Source: Pseudorhodoplanes sinuspersici
GTDB taxonomy: Bacteria; Pseudomonadota; Alphaproteobacteria; Rhizobiales; Xanthobacteraceae
Assembly: GCA_945878025.1 (NCBI GenBank)
Contig: CAMDXM010000005.1
Location: forward strand, 1 to 42,692
DNA length: 42,692 bases
Direction: 5' to 3'
Below, piece by piece: positions 29,509 through 38,740 of this stretch. The stretch's first letter is position 1; each line of letters begins with the position of its first letter. The translations under genes and the position numbers were made by a program. The notes below the pieces were generated by a model, which saw only the letters and a list, made by a program, of their open reading frames with translations, had not been told where the DNA came from and made no database searches.

Positions 29509-29521
29509 GCTGTTTTGCGCA

Positions 29522-29616
29522 CTGTCATGCCCCGCGAAGGCGGGGAATCCAGCTGTCAGGGAATCGCAATCATCCAAGAAAGGACTGGATCGCCCGCCTT
29601 CGCGGGCGATGACACC
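29522..29616. repeat. Intergenic palindromic repeat
   Basis: gtCATGCCCCGCGAAGGCGGGGAATCCAG ... CTGGATCGCCCGCCTTCGCGGGCGATGac: inverted ends. Confidence 0.7.
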
Positions 29617-29650
29617 GAGTGTAATAGCGCGGAATGCGAAGGGCCCCGCA

Positions 29651-29684
29651 GAAAAGAAAGGCCGCCCTTTCGGACGGCCCTTCC
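29651..29684 (-). terminator. Intrinsic terminator of the 25-aa small gene
   Basis: Minus strand GAAGGGCCGTCC GAAA GGGCGGCCTTTC TTTTC. Confidence 0.8.
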
Positions 29685-29730
29685 ATTGTCAAACCGCAGC
29701 CCGGATCTCGGACTGTGACTGGCCGCCTTC

Positions 29731-29808
29731 TCAGACGGCGCAGCCCTCGATCGAGCCGAGGGACCAGTTCACAAGAGTCCGCGCTTGCGGCGATAGACAA
29801 TGAGACAC
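29731..29808 (-). CDS. Putative 25-aa small protein MSHCLSPQARTLVNWSLGSIEGCAV (GTG start), absent from supplied ORF track
   Basis: Full-length SD AAAGGAGGTGATCC directly before GTG; intrinsic terminator follows. Confidence 0.6.
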   Translation of the reverse strand: MSHCLSPQARTLVNWSLGSIEGCAV

Positions 29809-29907
29809 TGGATCACCTCCTTTCGGTTGTTAACGATGCGACAAATCTAGGCACAGCTTTTTGATTCGGGAAGGTCAAAACTCCAGCACGCCCTGCCGGG
29901 CGATTGA

Positions 29908-30207
29908 TCAATGCCGGTGGCTCTTCTCGAACGAGGCTTTCTGCTCGGGCGTGGCTTCTTTCTGGTGTTTTGCGCGCCATTCCTCGTAAGGCATGCCGTA
30001 GACGATCTCGCGGCTTTCGTCCTTCGACATCGGAATGCCTTTCTGATCGGCAGCCTCCTTCATCCAGTTGGACAGGCAGTTGCGGCAGAAGCCGGCCAGA
30101 TTCATCAGGTCGATATTCTGCACGTCGGGGCGGGCGTTGAGATGCTCGGCCAGGCGCCGATACACGGCGGCTTCGAGTTCGGTGCGGGTCTTGTCGTCGA
30201 GGGGCAT
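29908..30207 (-). CDS. DUF1244 family protein
   Basis: AAVYRRLAEHLNARPDVQNIDLMNLAGFCRNCLSNWMKEAADQKGIPMSKDESREIVYGMPYEEWRAKHQ. Confidence 0.92.
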   Translation of the reverse strand: MPLDDKTRTELEAAVYRRLAEHLNARPDVQNIDLMNLAGFCRNCLSNWMKEAADQKGIPMSKDESREIVYGMPYEEWRAKHQKEATPEQKASFEKSHRH

Positions 30208-38426: not shown

Positions 38427-38602
38427 GCTCCGCGATCCGTTTTCTGCCTGCCTTATGCTGCATAGCAGCATCGCATTTCATGCAACCCGGCCGCCAGGCT
38501 TGAGCGGGGCGGATGAAGATTCGGCTTGGAGGGCGGCCGGCCGCGCCAGGCTCTTTCAGCGTCATGCCCGCCAGCAAGCCCGCAAACGTTGAAAAACCCA
38601 AG

Positions 38603-38633
38603 AAAAAAGGGCCGCTTGCAGAGCAAGCGGCCC
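38603..38633 (-). terminator. Strong intrinsic terminator of a minus-strand transcript
   Basis: GGGCCGCTTGC tct GCAAGCGGCCC TTTTTT on the minus strand. Confidence 0.9.
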
Positions 38634-38740
38634 AAGTCTAGGGAGGAAACGCCCAAGGAGGGCGGCGGGAATGAGCGAAGCTCATTGCCGCGCTGCAGCA
38701 ATATCGCATCGCGCCGCACAAAAAGCAAGAGGGTATGTCA
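38603..38740 (-). ncRNA. Putative trans-acting sRNA with anti-Shine-Dalgarno motifs (5' end approximate)
   Basis: Hairpin AATGAGC TTC GCTCATT; hairpin CGCCC TCCTT GGGCG (anti-SD loop); single-stranded GTTTCCTCCC; terminator hairpin plus T6. Confidence 0.55.

What the first reader, a model, noticed from the sequence alone, without database searches (positions are those of the whole stretch)
29650..29870. Unannotated 25-codon gene with a full-length anti-16S Shine-Dalgarno and its own terminator
The minus strand reads AACCGAAAGGAGGTGATCCA-GTG. The AAAGGAGGTGATCC stretch is complementary to essentially the whole 16S 3' tail (GGATCACCTCCTTT), far beyond an ordinary SD. It leads into MSHCLSPQARTLVNWSLGSIEGCAV-stop, then about 45 nt later a 12-bp GAAA-tetraloop terminator with a T-rich tail. 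The unit is compact (about 200 nt), has the SD-CDS-terminator order, and is missed by the ORF track. It could be a highly translated microprotein or a dual-function sRNA that engages 30S subunits. I recognise no known family for the peptide.
Basis: partly seen in the sequence, partly recalled or inferred. Interest (0 to 1): 0.8.

Follow-up and report, generated by a model that had tools for sequence, protein, structure and literature searches.

The report
Tiny mRNA with super-strong ribosome site
This is a real, conserved mini-gene of alphaproteobacteria: an RNA of about 186 bases that carries a perfect 17-base match to the ribosome's RNA tail; its kind was described in 2017 in Bradyrhizobium and it is filed in Rfam as the sRNA CC2171, but its peptide looks barely constrained and its promoter carries a cell-cycle methylation site, which appears to be new.

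Summary
On the minus strand, GAAAGGAGGTGATCCAG (29824-29808) matches 17 nt of the 16S 3' tail and runs into the first base of a GTG start; a 25-codon ORF (29808-29731) and a 12-bp GAAA terminator follow. It is the only such site in the assembly. The unit is Rfam RF01867 (CC2171, 77.1 bits, cut-off 75). It belongs with the 'small mRNA with an extended Shine-Dalgarno' of Hahn et al. 2017 (rreB, 14 aa; rreR, 18 aa): I recovered 14-aa ORFs in Bradyrhizobium and 18-aa ORFs in Rhodobacterales behind the same site. The window has a third type (MSHC..., mostly 24-25 aa). So 'no known family' is wrong. New here: (i) start, frame and stop are kept but amino acids hardly are (pN/pS 0.68; 14-aa type shows nonsynonymous excess); (ii) a compensated long-range helix, CAUUGUC/GACAAUG, locks the ORF; (iii) the promoter carries GANTC in 59/102 relatives (7% in controls), in the window in GcrA-type form. 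Best reading: a 30S-binding, weakly translated regulatory mRNA, probably cell-cycle timed, whose peptide sequence matters little. Expression and 30S binding were not testable here.

The parts
29867..29872 (-). -35-like element TTCCCG of the predicted promoter
   Evidence: Conserved block CTTnC/TTGAC, 16-18 nt before CTAnATT, across dereplicated relatives; a generic sigma70 scan does not call it
29862..29868 (+). TGATTCG: GANTC (CcrM) site in the extended GcrA-type form YGAKTCG, at the -35/spacer of the promoter
   Evidence: GANTC in 59/102 relatives' promoters vs 36/510 control windows; motif YGAKTCG from PMC7987155
29844..29849 (-). -10-like element TAGATT; start site then predicted near 29836
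   Evidence: comparative; no transcript data
29651..29836 (-). Predicted transcript (about 186 nt); Rfam RF01867 CC2171 match covers 29832-29658
   Evidence: (77.1 bits, E 3.2e-14)
29808..29824 (-). Extended Shine-Dalgarno GAAAGGAGGTGATCCAG, 17 nt complementary to the 16S 3' tail, overlapping the first base of the start codon
29731..29808 (-). ORF of 25 codons plus stop, GTG...TGA: MSHCLSPQARTLVNWSLGSIEGCAV
   Evidence: stop position kept with TGA/TAA/TAG exchange
29796..29802 (-). 5' arm CATTGTC of the long-range helix (codons 3-5)
   Evidence: compensatory changes in relatives
29758..29767 (-). CTGGTCCCTC inside the ORF: degenerate mimic of the 16S tail that could pair with the SD (strong in relatives, weak in the window)
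   Evidence: window z only -0.76
29684..29690 (-). 3' arm GACAATG of the long-range helix, abutting the terminator
29651..29683 (-). Intrinsic terminator: 12-bp stem, GAAA loop (29683-29656), T-rich tail

Best explanation
A free-standing mini-mRNA of the rreB/rreR (Rfam CC2171) kind. RNA polymerase starts near 29836 from a promoter with a GANTC site, probably activated by GcrA on CcrM-methylated DNA, and stops at the terminator. The RNA presents a 17-nt duplex partner for the free 16S tail, so 30S subunits bind it very tightly. Going on to translate is hard: the duplex includes the first base of the GTG start, which must be freed for initiation, and from codon 3 on the ORF is closed in a stable structure sealed by CAUUGUC/GACAAUG against the terminator. 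The RNA therefore exists mainly as a 30S-bound complex that is slowly translated; the passage of ribosomes, rather than the peptide's sequence, sets its lifetime and output. Shown here: sequence anatomy, conservation, helix covariation, weak amino-acid constraint, promoter-site enrichment. Inferred: 30S binding in this organism, weak translation, GcrA control and any effect on other genes.
For: RF01867 match; found in all 8 genomes of the genus and 37 of 61 genomes searched. Same SD in 269/399 family genomes vs 2/399 for the reversed pattern, and in 34/385 of the class with 0 controls. Duplex -31.0 kcal/mol. ORF kept: frame-0 stop interquartile 72-75 nt with three different stop codons, while frames 1 and 2 scatter. 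Amino acids weakly constrained: pN/pS 0.68 [0.53-0.86], 0.84 in the 18-aa type, 11.9 in the 14-aa type. Long-range helix with CAUUGCC/GGCAAUG and CACCG/CGGUG compensation. Fold z -5.86; start codon about 95% open but codons 3-5 closed. GANTC 59/102 vs 36/510, p 1e-29; YGAKTCG 38/102 vs 8/510; GcrA gene present.
Against: No transcript, ribosome or binding data for this organism. pN/pS is significantly below 1 in this type and 0.38 in the MSD clade, so some peptide constraint remains. The MSD clade largely breaks the long-range helix. The SD is not clearly more open than in shuffled controls (0.45 vs 0.43 across the type). GANTC is lacking in about 40% of the type and is not enriched in the Rhodobacterales type. 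Relatives are not independent, so p-values overstate.
Confidence: 0.6

Rival explanations
1. A functional microprotein gene: the peptide itself acts and the strong SD only ensures its synthesis.
For: Frame 0 has the lowest pN/pS of the three frames; 0.38 in the MSD clade. Motif MSHCLSPR...WILAS.EV is recognisable across genera. Start, frame and stop are kept.
Against: Unrelated peptides (14, 18 and about 25 aa) sit behind the same SD. Codon positions diverge almost equally (0.059, 0.072, 0.081). The 14-aa type has nonsynonymous excess. Some frame shifts keep the RNA motif CTGGA (L005, L006, L069).
Confidence: 0.15
2. A trans-acting base-pairing sRNA (as Rfam's label CC2171 says) in which the SD-like stretch only mimics a ribosome site or serves as a target seed.
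For: Rfam classes RF01867 as sRNA; strong structure with compensatory changes.
Against: The 17-nt match is exactly to the 16S tail and correctly spaced (7 nt from GGAGG) to a kept GTG/ATG and a kept stop in all types. No target search was done.
Confidence: 0.12
3. A 30S decoy: by occupying free 16S tails it lowers or re-balances initiation on other mRNAs, for example at a set point of the cell cycle.
For: Duplex far stronger than a normal SD; single copy, free-standing, terminated; promoter with GcrA-type site.
Against: Would have to be very abundant compared with free 30S; abundance unknown. Does not explain why an in-frame stop is kept.
Confidence: 0.13

Closest known systems
rreB / rreR small mRNAs with extended Shine-Dalgarno (Hahn et al. 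2017, RNA Biol 14:1353, PMC5711450; title seen, content from memory because the paper is not held)
   Same: 17-nt complementarity to the 16S tail overlapping a GTG start, tiny ORF, own terminator, alphaproteobacterial; my loci give 14-aa ORFs in Bradyrhizobium and 18-aa ORFs in Rhodobacterales, as I recall the paper states
   Different: The window has the 25-codon MSHC type with no KRCHLAGIAR or RGVGT; it has the CAUUGUC/GACAAUG helix and a GANTC promoter
Rfam RF01867 CC2171 (Caulobacter sRNA; Landt et al. 2008, not held)
   Same: Full-length covariance-model match above cut-off
   Different: Annotated as noncoding; the 14-aa type scores below its cut-off of 75 (e.g. L024 47 bits, L029 45 bits)
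Leader-peptide attenuators such as trpL/peTrpL
   Same: Short ORF in a structured RNA ending in a terminator
   Different: No conserved downstream gene; neighbours change between relatives
Extended SD-aSD sites of Staphylococcus aureus mRNAs (PMC13009471)
   Same: Long SD duplex reaching toward the start codon
   Different: There a common feature of ordinary mRNAs; here a single 17-nt site in the assembly

Membership tests
RF01867 CC2171 | Covariance-model score over the curated cut-off, full length | tested here: met
   77.1 bits vs 75, model 1-159/159
rreB/rreR extended-SD small mRNA | At least 16 nt complementary to the 16S 3' tail just before a small ORF | tested here: met
   17 nt; 16S tail read in a same-family genome because it is missing from the own assembly
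rreB/rreR extended-SD small mRNA | Free-standing unit with own promoter and terminator | tested here: met
   Comparative promoter, terminator, changing neighbours; not shown by transcript data
rreB proper (14-aa MSHSKRCHLAGIAR type) | The 14-aa peptide sequence | tested here: not met
   Window peptide is 25 aa and unlike it; so a sister type, not rreB itself
rreB/rreR extended-SD small mRNA | Co-sedimentation with 30S; weak translation; ribosome-dependent stability | not testable with these tools
   Needs experiment
GcrA/CcrM-controlled promoter | Methylatable YGAKTCG site at a sigma70 promoter | tested here: met
   TGATTCG at 29862-29868; motif from PMC7987155; promoter elements are predicted
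GcrA/CcrM-controlled promoter | GcrA occupancy and expression change in gcrA/ccrM mutants | not testable with these tools
   Needs ChIP-seq and mutants
Leader-peptide attenuator | Conserved regulated gene downstream | tested here: not met
   DUF1244 upstream in some loci of the genus, DUF188 downstream in others, neither across types
16S rRNA fragment | Homology to 16S beyond the tail | tested here: not met
   Match ends at CCAG; Rfam finds no rRNA in the window

The most novel reading that the evidence does not exclude
A cell-cycle-timed regulator made of RNA and ribosome: GcrA/CcrM switches on, when the locus is replicated and methylation changes, a mini-mRNA that captures 30S subunits through a 17-nt duplex. 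Translating the ORF matters as an act, the peptide does not, and in the sister types the SD is hidden by a built-in copy of the 16S tail (in the 3' UTR in Rhodobacterales), making it a sensor of free 30S subunits.
Probability: 0.25. Interest if true: 0.8.

Novelty: new member of a known kind. Interest (0 to 1): 0.5.

Why it matters
It joins two separate records, an Rfam 'noncoding' sRNA family and a published extended-SD mini-mRNA, into one class-wide family with at least three ORF types. It indicates that the peptide is not what is mainly selected, and it gives a concrete test (GcrA/CcrM) for the open question of what these 30S-binding RNAs do.

Tried and rejected
Generic sigma70 scan: no promoter found; the comparative alignment showed one. 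Origin from a 16S gene: rejected. 3' UTR of DUF1244 or attenuator of a neighbour: rejected (changing neighbours, own promoter). Reading the conserved peptide motif as proof of coding: rejected after the codon test; the first version used loose alignments of distant pairs and gave 0.85, the stricter one 0.68. Frame-preserving indels as proof of coding: inconclusive. SD-mimic pairing as the main fold in the window: weak (z -0.76; not in the minimum-energy fold). Full text of Hahn 2017 and Landt 2008: not held. No protein-library search of the 25-aa peptide itself was made.

Full report
What is there. The minus strand reads GAAAGGAGGTGATCCAG (29824-29808) directly into a GTG start whose first G is the last base of the match. 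A same-family genome shows the 16S gene ending GGCTGGATCACCTCCTTTCTAAGG, so the complementarity is 17 nt; the 16S 3' end itself is not in the window's assembly. The calculated duplex is -31.0 kcal/mol against -11.2 for an ordinary 8-nt SD. A 25-codon ORF ends at 29731 and a 12-bp GAAA-loop terminator covers 29683-29656. The 15-mer AAAGGAGGTGATCCA occurs once in the assembly.

What it is. Rfam identifies 29832-29658 as RF01867, CC2171 (77.1 bits, cut-off 75). The family is in all 8 genomes of the genus and 37 of 61 genomes searched, one copy each. The SD-plus-start pattern is in 269 of 399 family genomes, the reversed pattern in 2. A scan of named genomes found it almost only in Alphaproteobacteria. 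Behind the same SD sit different ORFs: 14 aa (MSHSKRCHLAGIAR-like) in Bradyrhizobium and relatives, 18 aa (MSRVILERGVGTVRGAVA-like) in Rhodobacterales, a mostly ATG-started MSS type of varied length, and the window's MSHC type (20-33 aa, mostly 24-25) in Hyphomicrobiales, Caulobacterales and others. I remember that Hahn et al. 2017 described a 14-aa rreB in Bradyrhizobiaceae and an 18-aa rreR in Rhodobacter/Roseobacter, with a 17-nt SD, 30S binding and weak translation; only the title could be verified. The lengths I recovered agree.

Coding or not. In 51 disjoint pairs of the window's type, pN/pS is 0.68 in frame 0 (95% 0.53-0.86) against 1.36 and 0.93 in the other frames; the MSD clade gives 0.38, the 18-aa type 0.84, and the 14-aa type an excess of nonsynonymous change. 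Yet the stop stays put (25 or 24 aa in 99 of 127; 14 in 34 of 38; 18 in 40 of 42) with TGA, TAA and TAG exchanging, while the other frames scatter. So an ORF is kept and its amino acids mostly are not. In the 14-aa type every SD with GGTGATCC goes with an Ile codon ATC in GGGATCGCC, while most with GGTGGTCC have an Ala codon GCC instead, an amino-acid change that follows SD pairing; this association is clade-linked and so only suggestive.

Structure. The window RNA folds with z = -5.86. CAUUGUC (codons 3-5) pairs with GACAAUG next to the terminator; relatives show CAUUGC/GCAAUG (L020, L068, L074, L075) and CACCG/CGGUG (L109), but the MSD clade breaks most of it. The start codon is about 95% unpaired and codons 3-5 are closed. 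Stretches resembling the 16S tail inside the RNA fit the SD better than shuffled SDs do (mean z -2.0, -1.6 and -2.7 for the 25-, 14- and 18-aa types); in Rhodobacterales a conserved CUAACYGGCCCAUCUCC element before the terminator is predicted to hide the SD (0.21 unpaired vs 0.42 in controls). In the window this is weak.

Promoter. Aligned upstream regions show -35 (CTTnC/TTGAC) and -10 (CTAnATT) elements, the latter about 35 nt before the start. A GANTC lies between or on them in 59 of 102 dereplicated loci of this type against 36 of 510 control windows (p about 1e-29), at two preferred places. Among 16 motifs of the same form only GANTC stands out. 38 of 102 have the extended form, always in the same orientation (CGAATCR or CGACTCR, the complement of YGAKTCG), the motif reported for GcrA-activated methylated promoters (PMC7987155), against 8 of 510 controls. 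The window has it, and the genome encodes GcrA. The 14-aa type shows mild enrichment of GANTC, the 18-aa type none.

Mechanism. Most likely a 30S-trapping, slowly translated mRNA whose fate is set at the ribosome, transcribed under cell-cycle control in this lineage. Tight 30S binding follows from the duplex; slow translation from the duplex overlapping the start codon, the closed ORF and, from memory, the measurements on rreB. What it controls is unknown; the rivals are a microprotein gene, a base-pairing sRNA and a 30S decoy.

Noticed in passing
window 38595-38670 (-): Rfam suhB/mmgR sRNA (RF00519, 71 bits), another known alphaproteobacterial sRNA.
   Followed up: no
window 29520-29617: Two GC-rich inverted repeats (CCCCGCGAAGGCGGGG and CGCCCGCCTTCGCGGGCG) just downstream of the terminator, like interspersed repeats of this family; Rfam gives only a sub-threshold CRISPR-repeat match.
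   Followed up: no
L038, L044, L056 and other 18-aa loci, about 60-110 nt after the stop: Highly conserved CTAACYGGCCCATCTCC before the terminator in Rhodobacterales: a built-in mimic of the 16S tail predicted to hide the extended SD.
   Followed up: partly
L090, L129, L147: A 57-59-aa ORF with a signal-peptide-like start (MSHGASPVVAALFGLAALLTAG...) follows an ATG with the same extended SD; L090 is Azospirillum sp. B21.
   Followed up: no
L053, L106: Extended SD plus short ORFs sharing GQP in a Gemmatimonadota MAG and an unclassified MAG; may be real outside Alphaproteobacteria or mis-binned.
   Followed up: no
L036, L128: The 3' arm (AGCAAU / AGCGAUG) complementary to the start region lies in the terminator loop, suggesting a loop-start pseudoknot.
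   Followed up: no
L221, L226, L227: 12-nt in-frame duplication inside the ORF (WILASFSASAEVLA) in one genus; L226 and L227 are two copies in one assembly.
   Followed up: no
window 29908-30207 (-): DUF1244 protein gene (PF06844) upstream on the same strand, kept next to the unit only within the genus.
   Followed up: partly
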